Part shown: positions 11,071-64,000 of the stretch, in pieces | Layout: each line of letters starts with the position of its first letter | Numbering within the stretch: the stretch's first letter is position 1 | The notes under the pieces: generated by a model | What the model was told of the DNA's origin: nothing | The model's database searches: none | What the model saw: only the letters and a program-made list of their open reading frames with translations | From: Urechis unicinctus | Taxonomy: Eukaryota > Annelida > Polychaeta > Xenopneusta > Urechidae | DNA length: 64,000 nucleotides | NCBI GenBank assembly: GCA_034190875.2 | Contig: CM067343.1 | Span: 40,922,616-40,986,615 of the forward strand | Direction: 5' to 3' | Position numbers and translations under genes: made by a program

Positions 11071-12159
11071 GTTACTCAACCATCAATGTTCGGACAAGTT
11101 ATTGGGGTCACGTGATTCAATTTCCCAGATGATTGCATGCTATTACCGAGGTGGTGTTTGTATCGGTGGCCACATAAAATTTCAGGAGTAATGGTAGTTT
11201 TACAGGCGCGCAACCAATAGTTGGCAGTGGATATTTGTCGACATGCTACTTTCAGTCGGATCACCATCAGCAATTACCAGTTGGTTAAATGGCGAACACA
11301 GCGATTTGTCAATTCGTTGTGTTGATGTCAACAGTAATTACAGCAGCCATCTTCAATACATATACTTTTATAAATACAATTGGTTTTTCTCATTGGCCAA
11401 AGAGTCTGTTATGTGTTTTGAAATGCACACACTAAATGCTGCGAAACACTTGGTAAATTTATATGCTTATTTTTTTTATATCCCCCAGTTTATTTTGTGT
11501 TGAGCAATATTCATACGGTCGAGGTCGCAGATATCATTAAACTCGCCTGATACATTCTACACATAAGAAGTAGATAGATATACCAGCAACGGGACCTCAA
11601 CAGTAAATAACGCTAGCGTTATGAAGAGAAGTAGCACATAGTCATCAGTTGTGAGCATAGACACTGTCGCTACTAATTAGATTGGAGTGTTCATGTAATC
11701 TGTCGGTTTGCCCAAATTCAAAGCAATCAGGCAAGACTACAGTTTTAAAGCGTCCTTTATGTGTGTTCTGACTGCGCAAACTTATAAATACAGGAAAACA
11801 AAAATGTTGATTATGATCTCGACTCCGACTAATTCGCTAACATTGACACTGCTTGTGCTTGTTGTTGTTGATTAATCTGATGATTATGATTATGTTCGCT
11901 AGTGTGTAAGCGTCCTCCTCTCAACGGTTGTATAATGATTCTTATACCATTTTGTCGAAACAGGTTACATGATTTTCGATTGCATATCTATAACATTCAA
12001 CTTTTAATGATAGTTATTAGATATGTTACGATCCCTAGTATACAGGCCGAATACATACGATTGAGGTATGGCAAAGGTATATACATATTCATTGTCCCTC
12101 CGTCTTTCGTAACCGTGTCATATTAAGAGTTTAATGGAAGGAATCAGGGTTTTACTTTG

Positions 12160-12480
12160 CAGATATAACCTTGGATTACTCGATATTTTAATTGTTGCAA
12201 AGTATTTTAGATTGAGCCGCTTCGATAGTGGATCAATAGGGAAGAGAGGGGCATCCACGTGGATAGCAATTTAGGAGTAGTCGAACTATGCATACTAATT
12301 CGGTATGCCACCACCGTCTGATTGAATATATTAGACCATTTGAGACTCTTGTCTAGTTGAAATCACCATGGTTGTCCCATTAAAGTGGCATAGACGCAGT
12401 GCATGAGGATATTGTTAGTCAACCACCGGATCAATACTTGGATGGAGTCGGTCAATACAGGTGTAATTCACCAAATAAAT
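12160..12480 (+). repeat. Sub-repeat X, copy 1
   Basis: Shares with 18080-18500, in order: a GAGCCGC...GGATCAATA word, GAGAGGG.ATCCAC.TGGAT, a CCACC..CCGATTGA-like word, TTAGACC/TCAGACC, and TTGYCCCATT...GTGG/GTCGC. Because the second copy lies at the far end of block A copy 1, the block is flanked by direct repeats about 5.9 kb apart. No protein is conserved between the two copies. Confidence 0.65.
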
Positions 12481-14569
12481 ACTCCCTCAAAAATATATAC
12501 TAAACAATGGCTTCTTAGCCGCCGTAGCCCGTGAAGTATGAGCTATGTTTGCCTTCATAGTCTATCGTCGTAGATCTGCATTAATACTTTCAAAGGGCAT
12601 CAGTAATAAATGATCGGATTTGTGGTAGTCATATAACATGAGCTGTATTATCTATTGGGTATTTTTTGATGACAAATCCACTAACGGCAGCCTCCACCCT
12701 TAGATCAATTTGCTTATTTGACACATAGAGGTCGTTGCAAACCTTTTCGTATAAACGCTGAAGCTTTATGCGTATGAAATGCATATCAACTTAATCGAAT
12801 GACCCAGCAGTTGGACTGTTATTCCATATAAATGCATAAACAGCTGTCAGAGAAGACATGTACATAAGTTATTTGCACCCGGCATCCTCGCAACCAATTT
12901 GGCATCGCAAACCATATCTTACCGAATCGATTTAAATTAGATTTTTATGAGCGCCATTGCGGTAGTGTTGAAGGTAAACTGTGGTGGTTCTGAAACTTCC
13001 TATTCGGACCCATGCCGTCACCAGTTCTATTGACGTTATTTCCAGGGCAGGGCAACAGGTACAATAGTGTTTGCGAAACCACTCGGTCACGCTTTGATAT
13101 TGATAGGAAGCCAGCAATTTGTGCTCTATAGATATATTAAACATGGATGGTATTGCTACATAACCCACTTACAGCCGCGGATGTAGTAAACCTTGTTCAA
13201 TGGAAGCAGAAGGCTTTTTAGTATCAAATCAATATCCGCAGTGAGGCAATTGCCTCTTGACTGTAAAGCGTTCTAGTTCAATTCATAGGCAACGAAAAAG
13301 AGCGCTATGGCTGTGCTAAGCCATGAAAGCATGAACCAGCCACATGACTACTTATTTCATTTTTTGCCTATTTGGATTCACTCTTCCCTACGTTGCAACA
13401 ACACAAAACGGTAGCCATATAAACAAACATACCACTGTATTCAGATGTTTGCTCATGTTACATACTTCTTAACTGTTGATAGCAACTTGCTCCTGTTAGG
13501 AGTGCCACCACTTGTACATTGTCCAGACACCCCATGACTGCCCGAGGAAAATAGGGTTTTCATATATTCAGCGGGTAAAGATGTTCTCGCAAATGTGCGT
13601 GTATCTTGTGGGCAAGCACATGCATTGCCTTAAACGAATATTGGGATCGTTATTTGGCTTTGCATTGTTGCACAGGTATGTAGATCAGCGAAATTGAGCA
13701 GGAATTTCCATTACCAAATCCATCAATTATGATGAGCCAGACTTACTAAAGATGTAAGGTATAGCTCCATGTACCTCCGTCTGCTTACGTCTGTATTGAA
13801 AGCTTATTTGAGTCAGGTGTTATTGGCATTAAAGTGGTCCGATTATTGAACTTTTTTTTTATTTTAACTGATCAGCAAACAGGGATAAAGAAGTTAAAAA
13901 GAGCAAGCACCTATGCAGTTATATCTTACAGTTGCACATATCATCCAAGCTTATATTCTGTAGTGACTTTATGCCATCCAGATGCAATCATTTAAACGAA
14001 TTGTGAGACGCGATCAAGGTTCTATTAGGCCTACAAAATAAATATTAGGTCTAATTACGTACAATTATAAATGTTCTATCCTTTTGCAATTGGTTAATGT
14101 TGTTTACTGCCATTTTGATGATGAGCCTTCAGCTAACCATCACCTTCCGCTGAAAATACTATACTAGCAGTGAAAGCAATAGCAATAAGAATTGTGAGGC
14201 CTTAAATAGAGAGTTAATAATTTGACAATCTACATATTGTTCCAGATAAGCCATTTAAATAGCTCTCACAGTAATTTTGTGGAACCTGATTAACACGTAA
14301 AATACGCAGCTCAAGGGGCAGGCATTCAGGAATGCATTTTAGATCGCTGTAAAAAGAGCGAGTTATCCTCACCTGGCTTTGCTTAAAAAATAATTTATTA
14401 CAATTTATAAGCCATTTGATCCAAGTCCGCTCCTCGCAAACTATTTCGCCTTCCTTTGGATATCATGTGTCTTTCGTCCACGTAAACCAGGAGAATAATT
14501 CAAATTTTTTTTTGCATTGGATACTGTTGCATACAAACGGTGTTATGTATAAACGCAATTTTGAACCAC

Positions 14570-14810
14570 ACCGCTAGTTGTTTTCCTCTCTATAATTATC
14601 GATAGGATAAATATAAATTGAGATTGTCCCAGTAGAAGCATGTTGATTGTTAATGCTAGTCTGTCTAAAGCTATTGAGCCAATGACTGGGGTCAGAGTTT
14701 GATATTAGCCTTGGCTTGGCTCCAACTCTTTCTCGTGCGTCTTGATAACGGTCGGTTGTAAACCAGATTAATGGATGTTTGGGGCGGTGGTTTTACAGAT
14801 GCCTGCCCGC
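14570..14810 (+). repeat. Sub-repeat R4, copy 1
   Basis: One of four copies of a ~240 bp sequence marked by GGTCAGAGTTTGATATTAGC, then CTCGTGCGTCTTGATAACGG, then TTAATGGATGTTTG and GGTGGTTTTACAGATG. This copy lies at the position in block A that corresponds to the 55.99 kb copy. Confidence 0.8.
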
Positions 14811-16049
14811 GACATTTGCTTTGCTGATACCCAACCGATCGCCGACTGACAATATTTGCGGACCTATTGGTTTCGATTCGATCTCCATAAGCTCTTACAT
14901 TGTTCTGACAACTTAACAAGTGGCATATTCTGACCGATTTATCCATCCTAATATCCGGCATACAGTTGTGCGGTTAATGGTTTGTCAAACGCTGTTTAAT
15001 TGCACGGATGGACAGGTTGGATATTCGTGAATGGGATATATATGAACGCTACTTTCTGGATATTGGGTGTATTTCTAAATCTATTTCCGGTCGTATATGT
15101 ACGTATTGCACCATTTTATTTTATCCTTGGTCGTAAACCTCCTCAATTCGGATACTTATCTGGTTTAGAGAACCTACCAAAATTCAAAATATGCGAATGT
15201 TAATCGGATTTGTATTACTTCCGAATATTGATAATATCTTATTAGGTGCCTCAGTAAATGTTTCGCCTCGTTTTCAATTTGTGATGGAGATGTACGATTC
15301 CCTGACTTACATCTTACTTGATTAAGCATAATACTGGATAAAATACATTGCTTCCTATGAGCCTTTCATGGCTGAATGAATGTGTTGAAATTTGGATTGA
15401 AGCCACTTTAACATGGAAAAACAAGGTATGAGATCCCAAGAGCAAGAAAGAATTTAGCTGCTGTTGAACACTATCGTACTTTGAATGTCTCTTAAAGGAT
15501 ATATATTGACTTACTACTATCTGCAGAAAACTTTGGCTTGAACCAAGAGCCTCGAGTGCCTAATCAAGCCCCTTTATTTCGCAACTCTTTTGAAGCTATT
15601 TTTGACTGTCCATCCTTACTTGCTTAAATCCATCTAGAGCCGAGAAGACGGTATTTCTGTAGGAATTATCTTCCACCTTTCCAAGAACAGTTCAAATACA
15701 GTTTAAATCGACAATTCAGCATTGCAGCCTGTCGATTGTGCACACTTACTCCACATAAAGTTAAGAGATAATGTTTTCTTTGATGACACTTCACACATTA
15801 AGCTAACGCATGTATGGACCATACCTAGACCTTGCGCCTTCGAGTAAAATTATCCCATTAAGTGTCTTCGTTATCAAAACTGCTACAACCGGTTTAGCCT
15901 TTGGCGTTGGTTAAAGTGCTATCATATTTCATCATAATGAATTGTTTTCAGCTGTTCTGGTTCTTGCTTCGCAAATGGCATCCATACAACAAAATTGGTT
16001 ACAGGACAAGTGGCACGGACCAAGACGAGAGATTGAACTTACATAACAC

Positions 16050-16405
16050 ATAACTAATTATGCTAGTTGCTTTCTCTTCTGTAACTCTTGATAGAATGAA
16101 CATAATGTGAATCCTCACAAGTTAGACTAAAGTTTTTTGCAGCCGTCGCGTGTTTACTTTTAATGCTAGTCGACCTGGGGCTATTCTGCCGATGGCTCGG
16201 GTCAGAGTTTGATATAAGCCCTCTTTTGCTCCACATTGGAAAAAGATCCATCTTTCTCGTGTGCCTTTAACGCCATAACGATCGGTTGTAAGCCATATAA
16301 ATGGATGTTTGCTGCGGTGGTTTAACAAATGACCGTATGCTAGTACAGTAATACTATTTCTGTCCGTGATCTGTGGACAAAAATCGTTATAAGGAATGTT
16401 CATAC
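16050..16405 (+). repeat. Sub-repeat R4, copy 2
   Basis: Contains GGGTCAGAGTTTGATATAAG, a TTCTCGTGTGCCTTTAACGC word, AAATGGATGTTTGCTGCGGT and TTTAACAAATGACCG. It extends further than copy 1 and shares with copy 3 (18.78 kb) a tail with ATTTCTGTCCGTGATCTGTG. The - strand frames of 62 and 93 codons here are not preserved in the other copies. Confidence 0.8.
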
Positions 16406-18079
16406 TTATTTCTGTCAGTGTACAATTTTGATCTGAACTATCGAGGCTTAATAATGCTAGGTTGATATAATTCGGAATATCTTGTTTAATAGTACGGTCA
16501 TTGCTGGCTACATTGTTCCACTCATAATTTGACGAATTCAGGTCGTGTAGTTTCTAACAAGTGACAGTAACACATAATATAATTGCATCTACAGAAGCAG
16601 TAATTACTGCAGATTCATCTCATATTAGGGTTAGACGATTAAACCTAAAATAGCCACGAACTATCCTATGACAATGAATAACGTATTTTTTATGGTCTTT
16701 GTGCTATGGCGAACGACCTGCCAGCTGCAAGCCTGCATGATCTAGGCATGGCGGTGTTTTCGCACGTCAAGATTGCAATGATTAGACAACTGTTGTGCGG
16801 CATGTATACTACGAGTTGTTAATTTGATATCAAACGTTCCCATTTTTTTTTTTACGCAATAATATACCACCATGTTGCATGAACGCTCGACTTAACACTC
16901 GTAAGATTATGCAACTTTTGCATGTATGATCATTTGCAGAACAGATACGGCAAATATAGATTTGCACAATATCAACTGCAAGATTGCTTGATATGCAAGG
17001 CGACTAACATGTCACCCTAGACGCAACTAGTACTATTCTACAACTATGTTCTATGAAACCTGCGTTCTCGAATGAACGGACAATGGATGTACTTTTGTGC
17101 CTCCCGAATGATGTACAAAAGTCACATAAGTGGAAGGAACTCCTTGCCATTGTTTAATGAAGTTAACGATTGAATCTGATTGTGAGTGTGTATTGCATCA
17201 ATAAATAATAATGACGCAGGGACACATTAACTACCATGTAATGTACACTGCTTTGACGCCGTATGATGACTGCTAATTATTTGGTTAAGATCAGGAATGC
17301 AAGTTAACAATACTATGCCAAGATGTCGTATGTAAGTTTTCACTACTCATAGTTTGATATCCCAAGACATCAGCCCCCCAATAAAGCGTTCAAGAAAGCA
17401 AGGGAAACCAATGTGTAGTATCGCCGTCTTGAAAACCCGAAAATATCCAATAAACGATTGGTTCGTGTAATACTTTAAGTAGTGTACACTCTACTGGTAA
17501 TATTTTGGTAGCCCATCGAATTTGACAGTTGCTGAAACGCTGAAGTCATTGCGGGGATAACATAGAAATTGTAGGCATAATAATTGAAGTGACAATCAAA
17601 TGGAAATCATGCTAAACAATGCTTAGGCAAGATTATAATGCGACAATAGTGATCATGTACTAGAATATCCAATGCTGCCTAGCAGCTTCCTCGATGTAAA
17701 TGCTTGCCAGTTTGTCAAAGTTGTAGTGATCTTAACTTTCAATATCTAATAATTTTCAAAATAAACACGTCAGAAAATATATCCCGTTATTGATGGTCGG
17801 TATAGTTTGATAAATGTGCAGCATATTTGCATTTATGAGGAACAATATAAAATAGGATAATTTGAATCACCGATTATAGTGAGAACTGATTATTGTAAAA
17901 TTCATCTTACGGCCCAATGCAATTATCTGTTTAGTGGATGGGCTGCGTCGGACGTGAATAATTTGTTGATGAATAGTCGAGTCCTTGTTATTAAACGTTA
18001 TCGACGAAGTGTGTTGAGGCCTGATTAATAGCACAGAACTCTCATCAACTGAATACAGTTTTCGGAAACAAATCACTTG

Positions 18080-18500
18080 CAGGTATTGATTTCAATTATC
18101 AGTCAGAAAACACAACATATTAACAAGTAAATCAGCAACCCATCAGGTGATACATTTGATACGATAGAGCCGCCTTGTTTGGGATCAATACAGTCGAGAG
18201 GGATATCCACATGGATGACTATTCGGAAGTAGGTGGACAAGATACAAATGCAAACGAATATAAGGCATATGACCACCTGCCGATTGACTGGATCAGACCG
18301 TTAGAGCCTCTCGTTCGGGTGAAATCCCCAAACATGAGTTGCAATCTATGGCATACTGGTTGCCCCATTGATGTCGCCTTGGACGATAGTAGGATGCAGT
18401 GGGCCGAGGCTACAGAGTGTCTACAGTATCACTCAATGTTACATTTGACCTGTGTTAAAGACAAGACGTGTGATTCACTCATTGACAGATAAGAAGAAGG
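18080..18500 (+). repeat. Sub-repeat X, copy 2, with a 105-codon frame
   Basis: Second copy of X (see 12160-12480). A + strand open frame at 18175-18492 of mixed, Cys/Asp-containing composition runs through it, but the first copy of X has no corresponding frame. Chance is therefore the simplest explanation. I recognise no domain. Confidence 0.6.
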
Positions 18501-18779
18501 TATTGATGAGACTATTGCAAACTATATAATTGTATAGGGATGATAGTTACTGACCAATGAATCATGACCTTGTACCGCGTGCACAGAATTACCCCTTCGG
18601 TATCTATTGTAATTAATGGGATAAAACTCACAAATCGCTACGGGCAATTAAATTGATTTACAGTGGTCATAAAAAACATGGACATGAGCAATGTGCTCTA
18701 AGATTATTCGTGACTGATATGACATAGCGAATACCTCAACCATTTAATATATACGAAATTTTCATGAGCACTACCCGGG
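18501..18779. other. Spacer, nothing recognised
   Basis: AT-rich spacer between sub-repeat X copy 2 and R4 copy 3; no feature seen. Confidence 0.4.
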
Positions 18780-19055
18780 TAGACTCGAGGGTGGCACAAG
18801 CGTGTTTACCTTTGATGCTGGTCAGCGTGGAGCTATTCTGTTGATGGCTTGGGTGAGAGGTTGATATTAGCCTTTGCTTGCGACCTGCATCCGATCCCAA
18901 AACGAAGATTTTTTTTTCTCGGGCACCTTGATATCATAACGATCGGTTGTATGCCGAATTAATGGATGTATATGAAGGTGGTTTTACAGATGACCGGATA
19001 CTATTACTGGGATGATATTTCTGCCTGTGATCCGTGGAAACACAAAGTTTATATA
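18780..19055 (+). repeat. Sub-repeat R4, copy 3 (outside block A)
   Basis: Contains GCGTGTTTACCTTTGATGCT, GAGCTATTCTGTTGATGGCT, ATCATAACGATCGGTTGTAT, TTAATGGATGTATATGAAGG and GGTGGTTTTACAGATGACCG, then ATTTCTGCCTGTGATCCGTG. It is the copy most like 16.05-16.40 kb and lies beyond the end of block A, so R4 moved or was duplicated on its own. Confidence 0.8.
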
Positions 19056-20400
19056 AGGTTTACTCAATTCATCATTTATTATTCACATTTCTTATTGATA
19101 AACTCTTTATAATCAAATAAATGGATGGTAGAAACATATCCATACGTTAAAGAAACTTGCTGTGTAAGTTCATTGATGCCGGGCTCTTTGAGATATTGCT
19201 TCGAGCTTTTTGTTAAGTAGATCTGTCGTCGCTGATAACATGGTTCAAGTCTTCATCCGGTGAAATCAGTTCGTAAAGGTTAAATCATCACTTACAAGTG
19301 ACATTAATTGATTTCATCATTCGCTGGAATTATATTTGTCAGTGAATTACTCGATTTGAGCTTGCTTGTTGCCATTACTGACGCATTACAAGGTAGACAT
19401 GATTAGAAAATTGTTGTATGACAAATAGTATCACCTATCACAGCGGTAAGTCCGGATTTCTCTGATGATATCAAGCACACCAGATAACCAAGCTGGATAT
19501 ACGAATGTTTTGAATTACAAAATGCTTCTAACTTTCCGCAAGTTATTTTAGTCAGCGACTTCAAGAGCAAATGTTGTGAGGGTATTTCTTGTTTAAGTCC
19601 GAATTCTCTTCTGTAGTGGCTTAAGCTGTTAGCATCTGTACCGTTGTTATGCGTCCCGTACAAAAAATCATCAGTTGTTTGATGAAAATGTCCGATTAAT
19701 GTATGCTCAAACTCTTTCTTCGATGTCGGCATCACACCACGACAATGTACTATGGTATTTATATTATTATTGTTGGATTTAATCAGCACAGCCTTAGCTT
19801 TGTTGGACATTATCTCTGAGAAAATAGGTGTTAATTAGATTTATGCTGTGTATAGATAATTCCATAAATGCTGAAAAACAGGTTAAGTGATGTGATATAT
19901 TGCCTGCGTAATAAGACATTGGAACAACATCTGATGCTGATACGATAATTAAGACATTTCTTTCATGACATATCAGTTGCCTGATGCCCTCCGGTCACAG
20001 CGAGCTCATTGCCGTAGTTGTATTAGTCTATTAGGCCGGGGATAAGCCTCAGTGGTTATTTACTTGACTAGAATGGCGAAATGTGAAGTGTCCGTATCAG
20101 CTGCCCCCCTGGTCATTTTCGCCGCTGATTGAATTCACACTAAAGAATAGCTAACAGCAGCGTCCTGCGCTCGTGCTTTACACTTGTTGTGAATTGTGGG
20201 GCTCAAATCAACCAGAGATGATTTCCTTGACTTGGTGTGAGGACATTAAAGGTCAAACACAAAATAAATTTTGTATGTGGCTAAATAAGCGGCCCATTAT
20301 GATCATTTTATAGCCATACAACTCATTAAAGTATTGAAAATGTATGCAAAGTATGATGGACTATCGATCATATCGCTCGAACTTCCCACTCGGGAAAGGT
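19056..20400. other. Non-coding stretch, nothing recognised
   Basis: A - strand open frame of 135 codons (19403-19810) is the longest non-microsatellite frame here. It has no motif I know, no obvious promoter and no splice context. The rest is AT-rich unannotated DNA. Confidence 0.4.
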
Positions 20401-20970: not shown

Positions 20971-22257
20971 AATCGTGCCTGGAAACTTCGATGACATACC
21001 TATTAAGGCAGTTGGATAGAAGTTATTGGATGGTCTGTGATGCAGCTATTATCTACCATATACTCGCGCATATTTTTTATGTGAAAGGCATCACTTTGTC
21101 TCTATTTCTGTAGCCATTGGGACACAGTCACTGCACACACAGTCGTGATCTACGACACGCGTCATGGTCATGTCTGGAGCCGATACGTCATACTCATTAT
21201 TCCGTGAGTCTAATGGGCTCACTCTGATAACTTAATCGAGTGGTGAATCAAAGTCTTCGTCTGACGATGACTTAATTTACAAAATGGCGCGGCCTGTTCG
21301 AAAATTATCAACGCTGACCAAAAGTTGCTATCATACCAAAGGCAGACAGATAAGTGTTATATGAATGACGTCACTTTGTCCGCCGTCTGGTGGCGGAATG
21401 ATGCAAAATGGCTTGAGAGAGTTTAGCAAAGTCCGTTCGAAAAAGAAATTTAATATCTAATTTTATACCTGTTGCAAATGGTCGATTGTTATTAAAACAC
21501 ACCTACTGCTTAGTTCAAATATGAGTTTTCATTCCCAGTTGCCTTCATGATATCGTAAAAAACATTGGCGTTGACCTTTAAGCAACTATAGAATGAATGT
21601 TCTTCTAATATCGTGATGACTATTATACAACCGCAACTAGTTATTCACCGTTCTAATCACGCCAAGCTCTCTTAGCCAATGTGAATAGCGGTTGTGACAG
21701 AATGGTCAATCAATTCGGCCTAAAGTAGGCATGGCGTGTTAATTAACAGGTTTCATGGGCAACCTCATATTGCACGGCATCTATTATGAAGGTTTGTATT
21801 TATTGTTGGCAAAATCAATGATGGCTGATACAGTAGAGACAGGCCCATGCATTTTTGGTTGTCATATGGAAGAACAGCAGTTTGCCTTATTTGCCATGCA
21901 GCACCCGCATGATAGTAATATATAACGGTTAAATGTCACCAGGACTGAACCCTGTCGGCCTGCAATGCCGACGCTTGAATTCACACTATATCATATTGAT
22001 AATGTATTCTTCTTTTTCTGCTAATCTTGTAACTTTCAGAACACCGATTTACCAGCCTGTAGGGTATAAAGTGAGCATTTGCGTAACATATTGTTTCAAG
22101 TTAGAACGCGAGTTTGATACGTTCGCATAGGCCTTACCGTTAATGTAAAACTTAACTTTCATGGTAGGTAGTTCCATGGCAGTATGTTTTAAATCTAAAT
22201 GTGTTGATGGAGTTTTCGCCACCAGCTGTATCCAATAATACGCGGTAGAAGAAGCTC
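20971..22257. other. Non-coding stretch, includes a second CRE-like site
   Basis: Holds a second perfect TGACGTCA at 21366-21373 and a short GC-richer inverted word around 21379-21396 (CCGCCGTCTGGTGGCGG). No gene is recognised. A + strand frame of 65 codons at 21933-22130 has no motif. Confidence 0.35.
21366..21373. promoter_or_regulatory. Second perfect TGACGTCA palindrome
   Basis: Identical 8-mer to that at 20418-20425, about 950 bp downstream. No transcript start can be defined. Confidence 0.25.
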
Positions 22258-25200
22258 ATGTTACGTCATACATCAGCGATCAGTGTTCGGACAAGTTATT
22301 GAGGTCACATGATTTAATTTTCCAGATGACTGCATGCTATTACAGAGTTGTTGTTTATATCGATTCTCACATGAACACTTTGCATATTATAGTTGCATCA
22401 CAGGCGCACACTCAATAGAATGCTACTTTCAGGCCGATTACCATAAACGGTTATCAATTGGTTACGAACATGGCAAATTGCGGATTCGCACGCATTACTT
22501 GCAGCTAGATTTCAGCCGGTTGGGATGATGAATGGAGGGTTTGATATTAACGTAGTAAATATTATAACTAACAGGCGTAATTTACGTAGTGATCGTGCAT
22601 ATCAAAAACACAGAGTAGCATTTATTACAGCCATCAGCCCCCGCAAACCGATATGTATGGATGGATGTATGTACGTACGTATGTCTGGATATATGTTTGC
22701 ATGTTTGTATGTATGAATGTTCGTATATAAGTATGTATGTACGTATGTATTTTTGTATGTATGAATGAATTTTTGTATGTATGTATATACGAACGTATGA
22801 ATTAATGTATGTCCGTGTATGCATGCATGTTTCCGTTTGTTTTGGAGGGGTTGCGTTAAAGTTTGACGGTATATTCGAAGAATTGGTCCGAGAGTTTTAT
22901 TTTGGAATGTACAGAATCATCTCTATGTATTTTGTTGCTAGGAAATAGTCTTAGGAGCGAGCAGGTCCTTACTTGTACTGCGGTATGTACATTTTAAGTT
23001 TTATATATGGGATGCACGTAACCTTTGGGGTTAATCATGTTGTTGGAGGTGCGTTTTACACTGTGCAGCCACACAAACTTTGAAATGATTTCGCTATGTT
23101 AATTCATGGGGATGACATTGATGCTTGGGCAGCACCCCTTTTAATGGCACTATTTACTTTGGCTTAATCCATTAGTTATATAGTTTTATCAGTTTCAGTG
23201 CAGCTGGGAATGTAGCATGACGTAGTCTGTGATTTAGTAACCCTCCTGAGTTTTTAATGCAAATTGCATGCGAAGGCTATCCTTACATGACAAACAAGGA
23301 TCGTTGTTATTAGTATTGCTTCGCAGAGTAACCTGCAAATATTAGTTAGAGAAATAAGCTTAAATGAATCTCTGGGATTATAAGTTGCTTTTAACGATGA
23401 CGTGATATCGCGACGTCAATGTATAGCAAGTTATGATATTCTAAGTGAATATTATTATGTTTTTCGCTACATCAATTATAACATATGATATCAGAGGGTC
23501 ACGCACTCATCTAGCCGCCCTAAACCAAGAAAATCTACACCGTAGTATCAATACTATTGTTGAAACACCAATTGAACTTCATTTTCATTTTATTATTGCT
23601 TGTAATGTCACGATAGCACAGATAATCATTTGGCCCATTGCATAAACACCTACCACGTAGGTGAAAAATATCATATTAATCATCAGTAGATGATTCATAT
23701 GTTTACCACATCAAATGGTTCAGAATCAGATGAGTAGCCGTGCGAAACTAACCAGACTACCTGCAGCACAACACGATATATCAGAATATAACGTTGTTGT
23801 GGTTCAATCATATTCAAGTGAATTATGGCTAAGGCAAGACGGCAATATTTGTGGGTGAAATTAGCGTTGATAGTCTAAATGTGAAAGTAGATATGTAATG
23901 ATACATATTACTTGAACCCCTAGGCTTCTTTTCAGCCACATCTGTAAACAACAAAATTAGGTAATCTGAAACGTGTACTGCTAAACCTTACTTGGCGTTC
24001 CACAGTAACTCAAAAGACGAACTGTGGTGTGTCGCTAAATGCCCACTCTAAATCATCTAATACCTATATCGTATTTACCCCCGCTTATTCCGCGTTGAGC
24101 AATATTTACACGGCCGAGTTGGCATATATCATTCAAATCGCTTGATACATTATGCACATACGAAGTAGCTAAATGTACGAGCATGGACCTATGTACACCG
24201 CAAATGGACCCCAGGGGTAAGTAGCGCTAGCGTTATGTAGAGAAGTAACAGATACTCATCAATTATGAGCTTAGACACTATCGCTACTTATTAGATTGGA
24301 GTGTTCAGGTATTTTAAAGCAATAGCGTGATTTGTATATCACCTATGTTACGGACAGGTAGAGTATTCACCGATTGACAGATATCAGAGTGACCATAGCG
24401 CATGGCGGGTAAAGATGGCTAAATATACTACCCAGTTCCCTTTAAAGGAACATTCCGAGTTCATCTGCGAAATGTTTCAAATAAGCAGTGTTACCTTTAT
24501 AAAATATTTGTGTGAATACTGTACTATTGACCTGAGTTGTAGAAATGAATGCACATCTTGACATATCTTTGCCAAGGTACGTGTTTATTGTTGGCTAGTG
24601 CGGCCAATGACTCCAGGCATATTGGGGTCGTTTTGTCTTTGCATTGTTGCACCGGTGCATAAATCAGTGGATATTAGAAATTGAGCCCAAATTCACGCAG
24701 CGAAATCCATTGTGTATGTCATGCAAATACAATGCTTGTAAATCAAAAAGTTACATAACCACGATGGAAGAGAAAACGGCCAAGAATAAATGTAACATCC
24801 AAATTAATCAATATTATAAAGAATATCTTTATGTACCATATTGGATAAATGCAACGAATAATTGCTTTTCGAACGCAATTATATATCTATGTTACACGAA
24901 CGTTATACCACGGGGTGGGGTGGGGCTATCACTACTTAACATCGATGGAATATGTAACTTTACATTCATTAACTTTTGCACAATATTGATTCCAAGATTG
25001 CTTGCGATATACAACGATTATCATATCATCCATGACATAAACTTGACATGACAAATATGTGTTATTTTAACAGAACAAATATCGGACGATAACGATATTC
25101 GGATACATTTTCTAAGCTTTAACTTATTATCGGTAAGACTAGGAGTCATTGCACATATCAAATCAGTATATCGTATTCTAGTCATACTATGTGCGAAACG

Positions 25201-32270: not shown

Positions 32271-32274
32271 AGCT

Positions 32275-45084: not shown

Positions 45085-47312
<2,228 letters not shown>

Positions 47313-52430: not shown

Positions 52431-52504
<74 letters not shown>

Positions 52505-52530: not shown

Positions 52531-53180
<650 letters not shown>

Positions 53181-53702
53181 GCAATACATAGATTATGTAC
53201 CATAGCATTTAAGTAGCCGTAGCACATGAATTTGGAACTATGTTAACCTTCATAGTCTATCGTTGTAGATCTGCATTAGTAATTTCAATTCAGATTTTGT
53301 GGCAGTCGTATAACATGGCTTTGTTATGAGCTGTATTGTTAATCGGCTATCGTAATTTATGACGAGACTGGTGGGCAGGATTAAGCGTTATTATAGTGCG
53401 ATATGTAGATCTAATTATATCTGCACAGTTGCTTACTCATCTTGGTTACCAGGGAATGTTCTCGGTTACTAGGGAGTAATGTTGTTCCCTTTTAGTCTGT
53501 TCTTGGTGAAGTGAATGCTGTGTGCTATTATCTCAACACCCTATCCCAACCGATTGGCTATGTTTTATCTGCCATGCCATTGCCTTCACCTCAGGATGCC
53601 TCCTCATGATGCATACCATCGGAATGCGTTGTATGGGGAGGTAGCTCTGGTATGGTTGATTATTCATTCCCTTATATGGAGACGGTTACGCCAATTCTGG
53701 CG

Positions 53703-53710
53703 TATATAAG
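53703..53710 (+). promoter_or_regulatory. TATA box of the putative LTR
   Basis: TATATAAG, about 220 bp into the putative LTR and 216 bp before AATAAA. This spacing is reasonable for a U3/R arrangement. Confidence 0.5.
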
Positions 53711-53802
53711 ACCCATAAAAACGCGCTTCCCCACAGAAGTTACACAGAAGTCTCACAGAAGTCAACAGTAGCCAGAAGTCAGAAGGAAGACAGCCAAACT
53801 CT

Positions 53803-53854
53803 AAAAGAGACTGACTCTCGTCAACTCCAAAAGAGACTGACTCTCGTCAACTTC
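53803..53854 (+). repeat. 26-bp tandem duplication inside the putative LTR
   Basis: Two adjacent 26-bp units starting AAAAGAGACTGACTCTCGTC differ at one base near the end. Upstream (53728-53790) shorter CAGAAGT words recur with the same clustering. Confidence 0.95.
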
Positions 53855-53918
53855 AAGAGAGGCTTTAAAAGAGACTCAATCACTTCTACCTTGTTTTCTG
53901 CTTGTGAATTTAATTAGA

Positions 53919-53924
53919 AATAAA
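53919..53924 (+). terminator. Polyadenylation signal of the putative LTR
   Basis: AATAAA about 48 bp before the CAACA end, in the position expected for the R region. Confidence 0.45.
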
Positions 53925-55989
53925 CCAACTTTGGTTTAAAACGGAGTCCTTAATCTACCTGTGCGCCAACAAACCGTTTTGGTAATTTGAAGTTAAACCG
54001 AACGCGCAATAGAAGAACAAATGATAATATCTAAGCCAAGGCGCGATAGACATCAGCATGAGTTATTTGCAGCCGGCATACTCGCAACCAATTTGGCATC
54101 GTAAACATTATCTTACCGAATCAATTTATATTCGACATTCCTGAGCGCCATCGGGGTATCGTCGAAGGGAAACTGTTGTGGTTCTGAAACTCGATATTCG
54201 CAGTAATACCGTCACCAGATTTTTTGTCTTTATTTATACACTTTGATACTGATAATTGAGGAAGCCAACAAACCTAGCTATAAAGAAATATTAAACATGG
54301 ACGTCATTGTTATATTGTTCACTTACAGCATTGGATGCTATAAACTTGTTCAATGAAAGAAGAAAGCTTTTACGTATCAAATCAATATCCCCAGTGAGTC
54401 AGTGTCTCTTGACTGTAAAGCGTTGAGGCTCAAATCATAGGCAACGAGAACATTCTCCTTTTGCTGTGCTAACCCAGGAAAGCATTAACCCGCCCCATGA
54501 CTTCTTATTGCTCTTTGTGGCTATTTGAATTTACTCTTAACTACGTTACAACCACACAAAACCGTACCCATGTAATCAAACATCCTACTGTAGTCTGGTA
54601 TTTGCTCATATAAGATCAAGCTAAACCGCTTTTGCCAACCTGCCCCTGTAAGTAGTGCCACGACATGCATTTTGTATGGATGCTCCAAGACTGCCCGAGG
54701 AAAATAGGGTTTTTAATATATTCAGCGGTAAAGATGTTCTCGCAAATGTACGAGTATCTCGTAGCAGACAATGCTTCAACAAATACTGGGATCATTATTG
54801 GCTTCGCATTGGGGCACAGATATGTAGATCAATAGAATTGAGCCGCAATTTGCACTACCGAATCAATCAACTATGATGAGCCAGACATACTGAAGAAGTA
54901 AAGTATAGTCCCTTGTACCTACCTTGTTTAGTTATGTACCAAAGTTCATTTGAGTAAGATTTTATTGACATTAAAGTGGTCCGATTAATGAACTTCGATA
55001 TATGTAAACTGTGAAGCTATCTTATATAGGCTATTGTCAATTTCCAAGCCTAAGGCTTGATTTGGTATTAAACTGAACCTTGAAAAACTCCGTCGAATAT
55101 ATGTAGCTCTTTACTCACGTTAGATATTTTTGAAACTATGAGCCAAGCTTATATTGTGTAGTGGCTTTATGCAATCAATGTGCGATCATGATCAACGCAT
55201 TAAAAGACGAGACCCTGGCTCAATTGGGCATTTATAATAAATAATAAGTCTAGTTTGCGTATAATATAGTTTCATACGTCTGATCTGTTTATGTTGTGTT
55301 CATTGACCTAAATATTTGCATATGCGAAGTACGATATGAAGTATATTTATCTTTAAAACCAAGCAGTAAGTAATGACTCGCTTCCTTAACATGTCGCTGC
55401 TTGGTACAAGTATTTAGGATTGCATGTAAGGGGTCGTGAATTGCGCCTTATCCATAAAATTTTATCGATTTGGCCGATTAGTTAACACGTTGTTTGCTGC
55501 CATGTTGTTTATCAGCCTTCAGCTAACCACCACCTCCCGTTGAAGTTTTGGAAGTTGTTCCCTAAAAAATATCCCTGTTGATTCAAATATAAAATCATGG
55601 AAAATACTTTTTACAAGCAATTTGAGCAATAGCAACAACAATTGCACGGGCTAAACTAGGGAGTACTATTAATAATTTGACGATCTATATATTGTGCCAG
55701 ATAAGCCATAAAATAGCCCGCGCCGTGATTTCGTGGAATCTGATTAACTCGTAAAATACACAACACAAGAGGTAGACATCCAAGATTGCCCGTTGGATCG
55801 CCGTAAAAAGAGCAATCTATCCTCACCTGGCTTTATTTACTTTATCAGCCATTTGCTCCAGACTATTTATTTCGTCATCCTCTGGATTGCATGTGTTATT
55901 CGTCCTGATATACAGAATGAATAATCCAAATCAAATTTGCATTGGAGGCTGTTGAATACAAACGGTTTTGTGTATAGACGCAATTTTGA

Positions 55990-56225
55990 ATCTCAATGCT
56001 AGTTGCTTTCTTCTCAATAATCAACGATAGGAAAGGCAAATTTAATCCTCCAAAGTAAGGCTAAAGTTTGTCACAGATGTAGAGTGTTTACTGTTGATGC
56101 GGTCTGAAGCTATTAAGCCGATGGTTCAGGTCAGAATTTAATATTAGTCTTTGCTTGATCTGACTCTTAACGGTCGGATGTGAACAAGATTAATGGATGT
56201 TTGTGGCGGTGGTTTTACAGATGGC
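55990..56225 (+). repeat. Sub-repeat R4, copy 4
   Basis: At the block A position that corresponds to the 14.57 kb copy. Contains GATGGTTCAGGTCAGAATTT, AATATTAGTCTTTGCTTG, TTAATGGATGTTTGTGGCGG and GGTTTTACAGATGGCTG. Confidence 0.8.
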
Positions 56226-58199
56226 TGCATCCCAGCAATATTAGTTTCACTGAATCCCAACTGATCGCCAAATGACAATATTTTCTGACCCATTGGATCG
56301 CCTTTAGCATTTGTATAGCCGGCATCATGGTGGCTTCTTCGTTATTCTTACCCCCTAATGTGTTGCCTATCTCCGGCGTGCAGTTGCGCGGATAATGGTT
56401 TGTCGATCGGTGTATAATTGAACCGATGGACAAGTTGGAGATTTGAATGGGAAATATATATATACACTACTTGCTGGGGGTTGGGTGTATTTCTAGGTTT
56501 AGTTCCGGCCACATATAAGCAAATTACCCCATCTTATTTTATCCTTGGTAATAAACCATCCGTATATCGGATACTTATCTGGCTTAGAGAAGCTATCAAA
56601 AATCAATATTTGAATGTTAACCCGAATTTTATTGTTTCCGGATATTGATATAGCTTCATCTTAGTAAGTGTCTCAGTGAATTTAATGCCTCGTTAACTCT
56701 GTTGTCTTGCAATTTATGATGGAGATTGACGTTTACCTGACTACTTGATAAAGCACAATACTGGTTAAACTACATGGCGTTATATGAGATTTTCCCAGCC
56801 AAATGAATGTTTCCAATTTTAGCTTAAAGCCTTTATAGCATTGAAGAGTGAGATTCCCACAGCAGGGAAGAATGAAACTGCTGTAGAACACTACTGTACT
56901 ATTAATATCTCTTATAGAATAGAAATTTACCTATTATTATTTTCTACAGAAACTTTGGCTTTAACCAAGCGCCTCAAGTGCCTAATCAAGCGGCCATTGT
57001 GCAACCTATTACGCTATTTTCGACTTTCAAGACGAGGCATCTGTTCAATCTTGTTTGCCAAAATCCGTCTGGAGCAGAGAAGACGGCATTTCCGCCTTGC
57101 CAATCTGCTTTGTCTTTTATGGGGTTCATACTGCGATGTCAATTGTTAAAAGAGTAGTTAAAATGCAGTTTTAGAAGCCAAATCTGCTTAGCAATCTCCC
57201 AGTCCGCAGTTGCATTGCCGTTGCTGAAAGATAAATCGGGTTTATGTATTTGTTGCAACAAGCAATCAGTATAGTTTTCTACATAACACATCAAACAATA
57301 TGCATGAATGGTCCAACTGTTACAATTATAGCACACATTTGTCAAAGACTGCTGCATTTAAAAATATCTCTTGATTTTGTTAATAAAGACTTTACAATAC
57401 AGAAAGCAACTAAATAAATTATGTTTGATAGGAATCATATTCTCAACTTTAACGCGAAACGTGAAGTACCTCAATGTTCAGCTTCACTACTTTGCACGAA
57501 TCCTGGAACAGCCATGAGTGATAGTTGACATGCATGCTCTTGAGACAGTACCTGCTCATTCAACTGTGGGCATTTTGATGGGCGTATGGGAATAAATGGC
57601 GATATATCCTTATTTGGCATTCGGCTTTGTCGTAAGGATTTGTCGGGTAAGGCTAAAATTTTACCTCTTTGTTATTGCCACCTATATGACATCATAAAAA
57701 ATATAGAAAAAGTGTGAATGAAAATAAGACGAGCTTCAATTCCTAGCATTGTTGCATTGGTTACAAGTAGAATTATGCATTGTTATGTTTTGAAATTAGG
57801 CGCATAGAGATATTGGTATGATACATTGTGTTTTAATGCAATTGCACTGGTTGTGCTGCTGCATTACGTGACGCTATAAGTAGAACAATTGTTTCTGCGT
57901 GGATGCACAATGAGCAACCAGAATTAGCCATCAACGGGTGCTCGACAGCAAGTAAAAAGAATTTTTGTTCTTTAATCACACGTGTACGTGTACGGACCAT
58001 CCTTAGACCTTGCGCTTTCGAGTAGCATTATATGTGTCTTCGTAATCACAACTGGTGCCACCTGTTTTGTTTTCGGCTTTGTTAAAGCGACGTCAGCTGT
58101 TCTGGTTCATGCTTCGTAAATTGCATCCGTACACCTAAATAGACTACTACGATTTGCGTTCAGGTGTGGTCACAACCTGGTAACATATCGATTTCTTAG

Positions 58200-59999
58200 G
58201 TGTTTACACTAGCATGCAGTCGTCATCTTTATACCAGGGATATTCCTTGTGACAGAGCGACAAAGTGGATCACGTCAGTTGTTACGATAGTGTCAGTTAT
58301 TTTAGAGCCTAAGATTAAATTTAAGTAACCGTGTTATGTCTAAGATGAAGCCAGTTCCCGCGGCTCAGGGGTAAACTGCGTCATAGTTTTGCATCGTAGT
58401 AAAAAGAGCCGATTTGGCTTAATTTAGTTGCCTCGTTGGTCACTTATGTCATTATTTGGAAGATGGTAACATATATTTGACGGAAATGATAATGATGTCT
58501 TCTGTATACATCCACTATAGGTCTTTTTGCGGTGCACGAATGTCATTCACATTTGTGTCTTCTAATGTTGAATATGGTTTGTCGGAAAACCATGTAACAT
58601 AGCGATATAAATGTATACAACGGCACGCACAAAATAGCAAAGAGATCGGACCAATTGGACCAATCAATTTCAATACCACTTGATTTGTGCTGAGAGCACA
58701 TACTATATCTAGCTTGCTACAACTACTTTTTATATGTTGCTGCTTATGAGCGGTTTGAAAATAGCAGCGACACTTTTGTTTATATCTTACCTGCTGCCAA
58801 CAATCGGTTTTTTCAATGGCTTCTTGCCATGCGCCGATGTGGCATTTTCATCAAAACGAACATTAGCATTGATGTGTTCTACATGTAAATCGATGCAACG
58901 AACTGTTTATCTTAACGTAATTAAATATATCATAAATATACGACTTTAATTACAACAATTGCCTGTTCCAACCTGAACAAATCAAAAAAAAAAAAATGGC
59001 ATTGCGACATATGGCGCATTGTTAAAGGGGTCTCGTAGCATGCATAATCGCAAGTAACAAACAATTTGAACAAAAAATTCAAAAACACCCCAACGGCAAA
59101 TATATCTTGATTGACAACTGTCGAAACAGGAAAACAATGAGAAGAACATAAACAATACGTTTGATTTTGAAGTGATTATAATCATCAAGATCTTCATCAA
59201 TCAATTTCCTTGTCAGTCTTCGTTGAAAAACCGATTTGCATATGTTCTTTTTTAGTTGTAAATTGCAGGGGATGCTTAAGTCGCAGCATTTCATCACCAG
59301 TTGTCTTCGTGTTTATTTTAGAGCCATTTTCAGAGCCCATTTGGGACAAGCTCTCCTGATCGTTGTTTTTCACGTATTTTCTGTATTGTTTGATGAAAGA
59401 TTAATTACAGCCAAGAACAAAACAGGGTGTCGGCAGGTACGAATGTAAGGAATAGAATAGTGAATCATATGTATAGACCTTCCATGTCACGGCGCATATG
59501 GATTAGGGCCAATACTGTAGAAACACATAAAAAATCATTGAATTTGACGTTGTCTACTGTCAATTTTTCATTTCACACGGTGCCTAACACAAGCGTGTCC
59601 GAGTGGTACAGTAGATTATCATCACAAAACCCTAACACGTTTTCCACACTTAAGTATACAATACTATGCTTAGATGTATGATGTAAGTTTAAACCAAATA
59701 TTGATTAAAACCCCAAAAACATACCCCTGATCAAGCCTTCAAGAACACCAGGAAAACCCTCCAGTGTGGAAATACTCAATCATTAATTGCGTATCACTTT
59801 TATTCGTATATATTTTACTGCTAATATTTTGGTTCTCCAACTGCACGCCCTATAACTTGATCCGGACTAGCGCACTAACATACAATGCACATTGGCTTTC
59901 TAGCTAGAACCTGAACATGTAAGGATAGCCCGAAAATGCACATTGTTTGTATGCATCCCGAAGACATCCCGAGGAATGTGTTCGAAGTGTAAAAATTTC
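58200..59999. other. Extra segment inside block A copy 3
   Basis: About 1.8 kb lacking a counterpart at the matching point of copy 1 (between ~15.97 and 16.41 kb, where copy 1 instead has R4 copy 2). It contains an A13 run at 58984-58996, a hydrophobic 71-codon + strand frame at 58734-58949 with no known motif, and a stray piece of a later part of block A (next entry). Confidence 0.5.
59490..59860 (+). repeat. Out-of-order fragment of block A
   Basis: TTTCACACGGTGCCTAACAC near 59570 matches the CTTCACACAATGCCTGACAC text near 63368 and CTTCACACGATGCCTGAAAC near 27331. Then AATACTATGCTTAGATGTAT near 59658, CCCTGATCAAGCCTTCAAGA near 59725 and TATTTTGGTTCTCCAACTGC near 59825 match 17.31-17.51 and 63.65-63.85 kb. 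It lies ~4 kb before the collinear copy of the same text, so this part was duplicated locally. Confidence 0.7.
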
Positions 60000-62900
60000 A
60001 TATTAATTTATCTCCGTGTATAATTCTGATCTGAACTATCGAAGCTAAATAATGCTAGGTTCATTGCGATATCATTCGGAACATCTTATCGAATTGCACT
60101 GTCACTGCTGATTACATGACTCAATTCATGATTGGATGAAATCCAGGCGTTTAGGTTAACAAATAACTAACATGTGATAGTAATTCACATCATAATTGCA
60201 TGTTGCAATAATTTCGTCAATCGCTGGCATAACAATTGTTACGACATGAAGTCATCCCTACAAGTACAGCCATTTGAATTTACAGCGATTACAAAACCTC
60301 TTTAATTTTAATAGAAGAGCTGGTTAAGCTGATGAAAAAAACAGGAAATCAATTGAAATTACTGAAGGTTCATCGTGGTTCGGGAATTAGACGACTGAAC
60401 CTAAAATAGCTACGAGCTATCCTATGACAATACATTACGTATATTGGTGTGGTATTTATGCTAAAAAACGACCTGCCCAATGCAAGTCTGCATGATCAGA
60501 CCATTGCATTTACTTTGGCTGTGTTTTCGAATGGTACGATTGCAATGATTACACAACTGTTGTTTGACATATATATTCCGGGTTGTTAATATGATATCAA
60601 ACGTTCTAATTTGTTTTAATAAAGTGCAACCATGTTACATGAATTTTAGACTTCTGGTTAGGCAATAACTATTTAACACTCGTAACATTATGTAACTTTA
60701 CATGCATGATCTTTTGCGGGAAAGATACAGCAACTATAGATTTGCAAAATATTAACTACAAGATTACTTAACATGCAAGACGACTTATAAATTATCAATG
60801 ACAAACTAAGCAAGTTAATGTTAATATAAATATGACAAATATCAGATGGTTACGATATTTAGATATAAATTTTTAGCTCCATCGTCTTTTGAAAGACAGA
60901 GAGTTCAGGGTATATATCAGTGCACAATAATCCCGTCATACAGTGTCGAACAAAAGACCCTCTAATGGTTCCGCAGAATCACGTCCCAGCTCCCCGGACT
61001 GGAAGTGGTAGAAGCATAAAATAATTGCCACATATATGGCGCTAGCAGGTAACCTTATGGTTCAGGACACGTGACCATACCGCCTGGGATATCGCTTTAG
61101 CGCTTGCAAAAATTATTCTTATCCTTTTATGATTATGTTGGTGTGTATATACACAATGAGTCCTTTCGGTCTTCACGTGAATTAATTTTAAGCAAGCATG
61201 AAACACCTGCGAATAACACTGTCAAGTAGTTTGGGACTGCATAAGTCTGATGCAATTATTTGGCTAGAATGCCGAAACGTAAATAACCCTTATCAATTGT
61301 TCCCATAGATATGTGGACTGCTGATTGCTGTTGTTCATTTGTTTTCGTTGAAGTTAACATAATACTGGCTGTTATTGCCTTTAGAATGGATCTCATTTAC
61401 TAAGTTATTCTGATACAAAAAGAAATACAGGAAACTTGACACTAAACCATGAGTTCGTGTCGAACTGTGAGGATACTTGCACCGACAACTTTTTAGTTCA
61501 GAGCAATCGATTGCCTATAATTTTTCTCTAATGCATATCGTCAAGTTCTTAGGTTTCAACCGTACATATTTATTATTCAATTTGGTTGTTTAGAAGTTCT
61601 ACATGTTTGATACATACTTGTTTATTGATAGGCGTTCCATGAACATTATCTAATAATATTGACCTACGCTTTTTATCTTGCGTTGACGGAATATATTTCT
61701 ATTTCCGCGCCGTAGTTGTCAATGACGAAACGTTTATTGATATTTCAATTAAGTGATTGTATATAATCGGATAATTCATTTACTTGGACCGATAAATTTA
61801 TCTTAAGAGAAAACCGTTGATGTATTATGTTTTAATGATTATCATCGGATATAAGAACCGGTCTAATCTCAGTTTCTAAGAATATAATATTTACAGGTTG
61901 GCTTTTTAGATACTGTTACATAATAAAGTTTATATCCAGTCATTGTTTGCTGTGTACCCATTCAAAGGAGGTGGGGATGCAAACTGTCACTATTTTCCCC
62001 ATATGAAAATGAATTACGTAAGCTACGCACAGTGGTTATTCTGTCCATCAATACTATTCATATATCTAATCATCTCAGGATTCTTGAGCAGCTGGACAAA
62101 TTGTAATTGTGTCCAGATAAGGCATAACGTAAGCAGCACTATTCTGCAACAATGTTCTGTGAAACCTCTGTACTAGAATAAATCTACAGTGGACGTACTG
62201 TCAAGCTTCCCGAATGGTTTATCTATACTGGAAATGGTGGATAATGGAATTATATGCAGCCCAGTCAGTGGCGTGTTTCGCATATGAATAGGAGGGTCGT
62301 TGCATGCCATCTCAATTGAGTGTCTCCTGCCACATCAACAGCGCATTTGCGAGCCTTCATTGTTCCTCGCGGAACAAGTCAATAGATCACACAGTCCAAT
62401 GTTTACCAACGCTATTGGTGACACTTCCCAAAGCTGCATGTATATAAGTCACACAAGCTAAAGGCACTTTTTGGCAAAGTGTATTTAAGCTAACGTTTGA
62501 ACCTGATAGTGAGTGTGTATTGCTTGGTGCGATGTTATGTCAGCTGGTGTTCAAACGAAGCTAGCTACAGAGAAGCATTAGAGTATTTGAGTCAGTCTTT
62601 ATATCCATTCGGAAAAAATGGCAGATCACGTTGGCCACCTTAAAACAATGCAGTCTCGTGTGCTTTTGTCTGTCTATTTAGTACACAAGGGTGTCAGCTT
62701 AACGTTAATGAAGTATAAACTCCGTATATTTCACTTGCCGCGGCGATTGTTCAGCTGTTATCATTGAAACCCCACCCCCACTTTAACGACCATTAATTGT
62801 ATAGAACATTTGCAACCATATAATTGTCCTAATGCGTTAATGTAATTGAAATAGAAGAATGACATTTGCATGACAGTGCATGCTATGACAATTTACATAA

Positions 62901-64000
62901 TCATGTCATGAATACATGGTTCCTTTTGCAATTAATGCTAAAAATGAAACTACAAAAGCTGAATTGATACTATCGGTGTTTGTTTTGTATCAAAATACAC
63001 CTCCTTCGTTTAAATCGAAGATTAATGTTGACAATGGCACATAAGAACATGGTTTAGGCGTAACAAAACTGCCTTTACTCATCAACGTCATGGTACCACC
63101 TTATTACTAAAACCGATGTCAGGGCTAAGCGCTGCAGATCATAATTTGTTCGCAACCCCAAAAAATCTAAATACGTTCGGATACTGCAAGGCATCTGAAG
63201 CCCAACTCAGTTAATTCATGCGAAGTTAAATAAATTCCATTTATTGACACTGTAGGACATAAACTACCATTTCGAAGTCACGATAAAAAAAAACCAGTTG
63301 CAAACAATGTTAGATGTAGAAAGACATTATGCGCTGAATATGATAATGCTTTCTGTCGTTGTTTCGCTTCACACAATGCCTGACACAAGCGTGTCACAGT
63401 TTCACCGTTCGTCATCGCCAAAAATGATTCCGCTTTTTCCGACTTAATTTGACGGACGGTTGCATGTGAACGATTGGATAATGTTTGTACCATTTGTCAT
63501 GCGACTAACGAGAACACAAAAGCGCGTTATCACTTAGCTTCAATAACAGCCGGGATTTTATTGATTTGATTCGTCAAAAGAATATGATGTACACGGCTTT
63601 AACGCTGTGAGATGACCGAGAAGAATTTGATAAAGAACCTGAATGCAAGATAACAATACTATGTCGTTTGTAAGTTGTAACCAATCTTCGTTTGATAACC
63701 TGAGAAATCAGCCCCTGATCAAGCGTTCAACAAAACAAGGGAAACGATTATATTGTTTCGCCACCTTGAAAACCAAAAATATTCATACACAATTGGCTCG
63801 AGTATAACTTTATGTAGTATATAATCGACTGATAATAGTTTTGTTTTCCTTCCAATTTGACAAATGTTGAAACGCTGAAGTCATTTTGGTGTTAGCAAAG
63901 AGATTGCAGGTATAATAATTGAAGTAGGAATCAAAATGAAATCATGCTTATCAATGCTTAAGCAACATTAAAATGTGATAATAGTGATTATGTACAAGAA

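What the first reader, a model, noticed from the sequence alone, without database searches (positions are those of the whole stretch)
11075..64000. Block A: a multi-kilobase, non-coding, three-copy direct repeat of unknown class
Copies at 11.07-18.06, 22.26-28.04 and 53.2-64.0 kb keep the same word order and orientation over kilobases while having diverged heavily by substitution and indels. No coding frame is kept, and I see no transposon signature. A TE would usually show a terminal structure or a decayed protein. A macrosatellite monomer or repeated segmental duplication of intergenic DNA fits better. If found genome-wide, it would be a large undescribed repeat family.
Basis: seen in the sequence. 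Interest (0 to 1): 0.72.

Follow-up and report, generated by a model that had tools for sequence, protein, structure and literature searches.

The report
Ancient decayed tandem non-coding duplication array
A stretch of apparently non-coding eukaryotic DNA seems to have been copied several times long ago, always in the same direction, and the copies have since drifted apart much as unused sequence would; it is real, but most likely ordinary.

Summary
The three Block A copies are homologous. Two more A remnants (18.16-20.15, 39.46-40.71 kb) and a second family, B (33.52-38.93, 41.25-45.03 kb; fragments at 4.08, 32.25, 46.40 kb), lie between and beside them. At E<=1e-4 all 169 non-self nhmmer matches (overlapping pieces, both directions counted) are plus-strand; one reversed and four shuffled controls gave 0 at that level. 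Nine of 12 copy pairs with three or more matches are perfectly collinear. K2P is 0.25-0.45 over alignable pieces. Indels ignore the codon frame, codon scores show no outlier, and six-frame Pfam scans of every copy but B3 gave nothing above cut-off. In the blocks with three or more copies, gamma rate variation does not improve likelihood. Best explanation: repeated tandem segmental duplication, then near-neutral decay. A regular, homogenised macrosatellite does not fit. A transposon is less likely but not excluded: B copies start within about 75 bases of one another. Genome-wide occurrence is untested; the genome search did not complete. Low to moderate interest.

The parts
4076..4329 (+). B-1: remnant matching the 5' end of B
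   Evidence: nhmmer E 3e-8 to B1 33594-33832; profile round also links it to B0, B1, B2, B3
11070..17750 (+). A1: Block A copy 1, with an internal duplication 14572-14812 / 16061-16344
18159..20155 (+).
   Evidence: nhmmer E 4e-37 to A1 16109-16575, 7e-16 to A1 12207-12420; its last part (20.03-20.16 kb) rests on weak matches, E 7e-4 and 2e-5 in the profile round
22227..29530 (+). A2: Block A copy 2, patchy; tail 28.65-29.53 shared with A4
32248..33120 (+). B0: 5' part of B
   Evidence: nhmmer E 1e-26 to B1, 2e-25 to B2
33522..38928 (+). B1: longest B copy
39460..40708 (+). A4: shortened A copy lying between B1 and B2
   Evidence: nhmmer E 9.5e-16 to A3 56231-56809, 3e-11 to A1, 2e-9 and 6e-7 to A2
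41253..45027 (+). B2: second long B copy
46401..46734 (+). B3: remnant of the B 5' end (weakest member; not covered by the six-frame Pfam scans)
   Evidence: nhmmer E 2.6e-5 to B1; 2e-42 with a profile that already includes it
53188..64000 (+). A3: longest Block A copy, cut by the window end; internal duplication 59.4-59.84 / 63.3-63.85 kb

Best explanation
The window holds an old array of tandem segmental duplications of DNA in which no gene was found. Two blocks with no detected similarity to each other, A (at least 10.8 kb in A3, perhaps about 14 kb in full) and B (about 5.4 kb in B1), recur in one orientation along 4-64 kb and beyond, in the order B, A, A, A, B, B, A, B, B, A. Copies most likely arose stepwise by unequal exchange or replication-based tandem duplication (inferred); nested short duplications inside A1 and inside A3 fit repeated rounds. 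Afterwards the copies were not homogenised; they lost pieces, microsatellites and a non-LTR retrotransposon fragment came to lie between some of them, and they drifted in a near-neutral way (the near-neutral pattern is measured on part of the array; the duplication mechanism is inferred). No product or sequence-specific function is indicated.
For: 169 of 169 non-self nhmmer matches on the plus strand; 275 of 275 in the profile round, self matches included. Controls: 0 matches at 1e-4 in all 5 control targets. Order: Spearman 1.0 for 9 of 12 copy pairs with three or more matches; the other three (A1-A3 0.93, A1-A1b 0.86, A2-A3 0.44) include matches to the internal duplications. These counts hold redundant matches from overlapping pieces, and some pairs rest on one or two places, such as B-1/B1. 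A4 carries start, middle and tail pieces of A in the right order between B1 and B2. Gap lengths divisible by 3: 18%, 21%, 6%, 16%, 6%, 0% over six pairs. Gamma rates add nothing on the concatenated A blocks (2445 columns, lnL -6990.26 vs -6990.27, alpha 999) or the B 5' block (872 columns, -3049.98 vs -3049.97). No Pfam family above its cut-off in six frames of 10.8-30.2, 31-46 and 53.2-64 kb.
Against: Spacing is irregular and A2-A3 collinearity is imperfect. Homology of five B copies begins within about 75 bases of one another (B1 coordinates about 33540-33612) and that of three A copies (A1, A2, A4) near one point, while 3' extents differ: a shared end, as a mobile element would have, though a shared duplication breakpoint would give it too. 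Divergence of one pair varies by block (A1-A2 K2P 0.30 at 11.1 kb, 0.60 at 13.5 kb), so one event per copy is too simple. Identity is uneven in places: A1-A2 dispersion p 0.002, B1-B2 p 0.025 at 50-base windows but 0.33 at 20; 60-base windows of A1-A3 reach 97% at 13.54-13.60 kb (not tested); the 3' end of B is 78% alike against 62% (p 1e-6, segment chosen after the fact). No breakpoints were resolved.
Confidence: 0.65

Rival explanations
1. A and B are introns and spacers of a tandemly duplicated gene whose small exons are hard to see or decayed; duplication of the gene carried the non-coding DNA along.
For: Tandem gene clusters commonly create such arrays (general knowledge). The 3' end of B is more conserved than the rest and holds a stretch of about 30 codons open in both copies on the plus strand, with one 9-base gap.
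Against: 498 codon-score tests on ungapped stretches of 10 copy pairs gave no outlier (top z 3.13; mean 0.64, because the null includes stops). No Pfam match above cut-off; the B-end segments reach FlaF E 0.015 below its cut-off, and the best PDB match is a chain named Cake6 at E 0.014; I read both as chance. The open stretch is bounded by gaps of 7 and 1 bases and, in B1, by a stop.
Confidence: 0.15
2. A and B are large non-autonomous transposable elements inserted several times locally. Read on the minus strand, B looks like an element with a fixed 3' end and variable 5' truncation, as non-LTR elements have.
For: Five of five B copies start within about 75 bases of one another in B1 coordinates, while B-1, B0 and B3 are short; A1, A2 and A4 also share a start. 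A non-LTR element fragment lies on the minus strand nearby.
Against: No minus-strand match among 169, which independent insertions would give only rarely. No A- or T-tail or target-site repeat was apparent by eye at the aligned starts. Inverted pairs of 20 nt or more: 1 in A1, 2 in B1, 0 in B2, all internal; A2, A3 and A4 were not searched. No LTR-like direct pair in A1 or B1 among self matches. No transposon domain in the copies scanned (B3 not scanned). A4 keeps the order of A across kilobases of loss, between two B copies.
Confidence: 0.14
3. A macrosatellite or complex satellite still active elsewhere, with this window at its degenerate edge.
For: Kilobase units in one orientation; the array continues to the window end.
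Against: No constant period; the most alike block between copies is 81.5% identical.
Confidence: 0.05

Closest known systems
Tandem segmental duplications with short tandem repeats at their edges, e.g. the sea urchin Sp185/333 cluster (PMC5103432, abstract and section list seen)
   Same: Long direct duplications mixed with microsatellites; here 4 of 9 junctions between neighbouring copies hold a listed array, e.g. 45090-45234 just after B2 and 52813-53178 just before A3.
   Different: No gene found here; 5 of 9 junctions have no array in the list (score 100 or more), and one array lies inside A2 (22652-22830). Copies here are 49-82% alike in the blocks compared.
Human macrosatellites (TAF11-Like, SST1, PRR20, ZAV; PMC3018141, passages seen)
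   Same: Kilobase units, mostly head to tail.
   Different: Units there are 2.4-6.6 kb, each array with its own unit length, and TAF11-Like and SST1 monomers are given as 97-100% alike within an array (a few monomers there are inverted). Here spacing varies and identity is far lower.

Membership tests
Tandem segmental duplication array | Long homologous segments in the same orientation and order at one locus | tested here: met
   169 of 169 matches plus-strand; 9 of 12 copy pairs perfectly collinear
Tandem segmental duplication array | Homology not limited to a mobile element | tested here: inconclusive
   No Pfam family above cut-off in the copies scanned, no terminal repeats in A1, B1, B2; but shared starts of B copies
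Tandem segmental duplication array | Copies confined mainly to one locus | not tested
   The genome search gave an error in 11 of 11 attempts
Macrosatellite | Regular unit length | tested here: not met
   Block starts at 11.07, 22.23 and 39.46 kb; A1b and A3 begin later in the block
Macrosatellite | Highly similar monomers | tested here: not met
   Highest block identity among copies 0.815
Non-autonomous transposable element | Terminal repeats | tested here: not met
   for A1, B1 and B2 only; true ends unknown
Non-autonomous transposable element | Sharp ends shared by copies | tested here: inconclusive
   B starts agree within about 75 bases in five copies, A starts in three of five; no tail or target-site repeat seen by eye
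Non-autonomous transposable element | Dispersed copies | not tested
   Genome search unavailable
Protein-coding gene cluster | Conserved reading frame or known domain | tested here: not met
   B3 not scanned
Known RNA family | Rfam match at gathering score | tested here: not met
   0 matches in the window

The most novel reading that the evidence does not exclude
A and B are the visible edge of a large, undescribed, orientation-locked non-coding repeat family that keeps duplicating without gene content and without homogenisation, perhaps transcribed as a long RNA or small-RNA precursor where orientation matters more than sequence. The shared starts of the B copies, the more conserved 3' end of B, and the island near 14.73-14.80 kb that recurs at four places in three A copies would be its retained signals.
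Probability: 0.08. Interest if true: 0.6.

Novelty: new member of a known kind. Interest (0 to 1): 0.22.

Why it matters
Old duplications of this kind are easy to overlook: here non-self matches cover 25.1 kb of 59.1 kb of unmasked sequence. If the genome holds more such arrays, they would give a local near-neutral clock and a record of duplication history. On present evidence there is no function to explain.

Tried and rejected
Coding origin: tblastx between copies gave matches in several frames on both strands, many with stops inside (at most 25 rows per pair shown); codon scores and gap lengths gave nothing. Pfam matches below cut-off, read as chance: DUF6095 E 0.12 (17), PH_8 0.58 (34), At5g52880_ARM 0.2 and Chalcone_2 0.12 (37), DUF4139 0.27 and BH3 0.23 (30, outside A and B), TraN 0.23, FlaF 0.015, STING_TM 0.072 (48). 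Scanned in six frames: 1-9.00, 10.80-30.20, 31.00-46.00 and 53.20-64.00 kb. Not scanned: 9.00-10.80, 30.20-31.00 and 46.00-53.20 kb, apart from four ORFs in the last; B3 lies in an unscanned part.

RNA origin: Rfam 0 matches at gathering score; a permissive scan of 31-46 kb only gave mir-297 on both strands, below its gathering score, on the TA array at 45.09 kb. The segment aligned from four places in A folds with 0 of 35 pairs changed on both sides.

Transposon ends.

Outside copies: one 23-base word of A in viral contigs, 0; one 21-base word in genome contigs, 0. These hold viral and prokaryote DNA, so the misses mean little. Four paper searches listed 10, 15, 10 and 10 papers; no title or abstract start among them describes such an array. 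Only PMC5103432 (abstract, section list) and PMC3018141 (passages) were opened. The organism was not identified.

Extra conservation: the gamma test is negative for the concatenated alignments; for two small subsets it improves lnL by 1.07 and 0.72.

Full report
What was checked. Self-comparison of the window with blastn confirmed them. A1 (11.07-17.75 kb) and A3 (53.19 kb to the window end) share two long alignments of 1312 and 1582 columns at about 70% identity and several shorter ones. A2 (22.23-29.53 kb) is patchier. The similarity is not compositional: searching 700-base pieces of the microsatellite-masked window with nhmmer gave 169 non-self matches at E<=1e-4, while the reversed window and four shuffled windows gave none at that level; one shuffle gave two weaker matches, best E 4.9e-4. 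The 169 include both directions and overlapping pieces, so they are not 169 separate places.

What more is there. All 169 matches lie on the plus strand. They fall into two groups with no match between them: A (A1, A1b, A2, A4, A3) and B (B-1, B0, B1, B2, B3). One of the 169 lies outside the named regions, a local duplication 5412-5609 / 6156-6300. Order along the window is B-1, A1, A1b, A2, B0, B1, A4, B2, B3, A3. A4 (39.46-40.71 kb) sits between two B copies and carries pieces of the start, middle and tail of A in the right order. A profile round linked the members further, but its E-values include sequences used to build the profiles. B-1 and B3 are the weakest members, E 3e-8 and 2.6e-5 in the first round.

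Shorter duplications are nested inside: 14572-14812 with 16061-16344 in A1 (73% identity), and 59.4-59.84 with 63.3-63.85 kb in A3 (68% over the part compared). Matches to these are among those that lower the collinearity of three of 12 copy pairs.

Divergence. Over blastn alignments K2P is 0.25 (A1-A3), 0.30 (A1-A2), 0.36 (A2-A3), 0.40 (B1-B2), 0.40 (B0-B1) and 0.45 (B0-B2); local alignments favour the better parts. On MAFFT alignments of named blocks it is 0.21-0.35 for A1-A3, 0.50-0.56 for B1-B2 apart from its 3' end, and up to 0.73 for pairs with A4 and 0.85 for pairs with B3 or B-1. The tree of the A copies is close to a star, with A1 and A3 on the shortest branches. Values for one pair differ between blocks, so several duplication rounds or conversion tracts are needed.

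Coding. Gap lengths are divisible by three in 0-21% of cases over six copy pairs. Of 498 open stretches tested for amino-acid-like conservation, the best z was 3.13, with the distribution shifted by 0.64 because the null includes stops. Six-frame Pfam scans found no family above its cut-off in any copy scanned; B3 was not scanned. The one protein family above its cut-off in the parts scanned is a reverse transcriptase fragment at 48.1-49.0 kb, minus strand, RVT_1 E 5.5e-16, with R2 and LINE-1 proteins among its PDB matches. It lies between B3 and A3, outside every copy.

Constraint. Adding gamma rates to an HKY model changes nothing for the concatenated A blocks (2445 columns) or the B 5' block (872 columns). 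These blocks were chosen because copies align there, and most of B was not in this test. Mismatches in A1-A3 are not significantly clustered (p 0.11 at 20- and 50-base windows), nor in A2-A3 (p 0.71); A1-A2 are (p 0.002), and B1-B2 at 50 bases (p 0.025) but not at 20 (p 0.33). Mixed ages or conversion could do this as well as constraint. Three spots stand out: the 3' end of B (38.70-38.93 with 44.81-45.03 kb), 78% identical against a pooled 62% of three other B1-B2 blocks (p 1e-6, chosen after the fact); a 60-base window at 13.54-13.60 kb, 97% identical in A1-A3; and an island near 14.73-14.80 kb that recurs at four places in three A copies. No codon, Rfam or covariation signal names the first or the last.

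Starts. On re-checking the calls, the homology of all five B copies begins within about 75 bases in B1 coordinates (about 33540-33612), and A1, A2 and A4 begin at one point of A near 11.07 kb, while 3' extents differ. A common breakpoint of a tandemly amplified unit would give this; so would the end of a mobile element. By eye no A- or T-tail or target-site repeat is seen there. I therefore keep a transposon as an open rival.

Mechanism. Same orientation, same order, nested rounds and losses of different size in each copy are what stepwise tandem duplication leaves; unequal exchange between direct copies or microsatellites is a likely route. Listed microsatellite arrays lie at 4 of 9 junctions between copies, as STRs lie at edges of segmental duplications in the sea urchin Sp185/333 cluster (PMC5103432, abstract); 5 of 9 have none, so I do not claim them as cause. 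The near-neutral pattern is measured, on part of the array; how the copies were made is inference.

What it is not. It fails the test for a macrosatellite (irregular spacing, low identity), and no transposon protein or terminal repeat was found in the copies examined. Whether it is a genome-wide family is open: the genome search did not complete. The organism is unknown; the gene-poor sequence, long TA microsatellites and a non-LTR element suggest a eukaryote, probably an animal (my own judgement).

Noticed in passing
47459-49694, minus strand: Broken non-LTR retrotransposon: reverse transcriptase fragment (RVT_1, E 5.5e-16) with neighbouring ORFs on the same strand that matched no Pfam family. 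In 50,697 phage records it matched one, at 31% identity.
   Followed up: partly
2004-2204, 2419-3063, 6324-6686, 7807-8457, 9076-9266, 30267-30929, 52262-52535, 52813-53178: Long AT dinucleotide arrays, three of them over 600 bases; shorter TA-type arrays lie at 45.1, 47.2, 49.7 and 50.9 kb.
   Followed up: partly
47312-47415: A TTAG tetranucleotide array of about 25 copies next to a TA array.
   Followed up: no
38700-38927 and 44812-45027: 3' end of B is more conserved between copies (78%) than three other B blocks (62%); reason unknown.
   Followed up: partly
4076, 32254, 33540-33612, 41253, 46371-46401: Starts of the five B copies coincide within about 75 bases in B1 coordinates while their 3' extents differ.
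   Followed up: partly
1778-3064: Local direct duplication at about 430 bases offset, overlapping AT arrays, about 75% identical.
   Followed up: no
5412-5609 and 6156-6300: Short local direct duplication outside the A and B families, E 6.7e-11.
   Followed up: no
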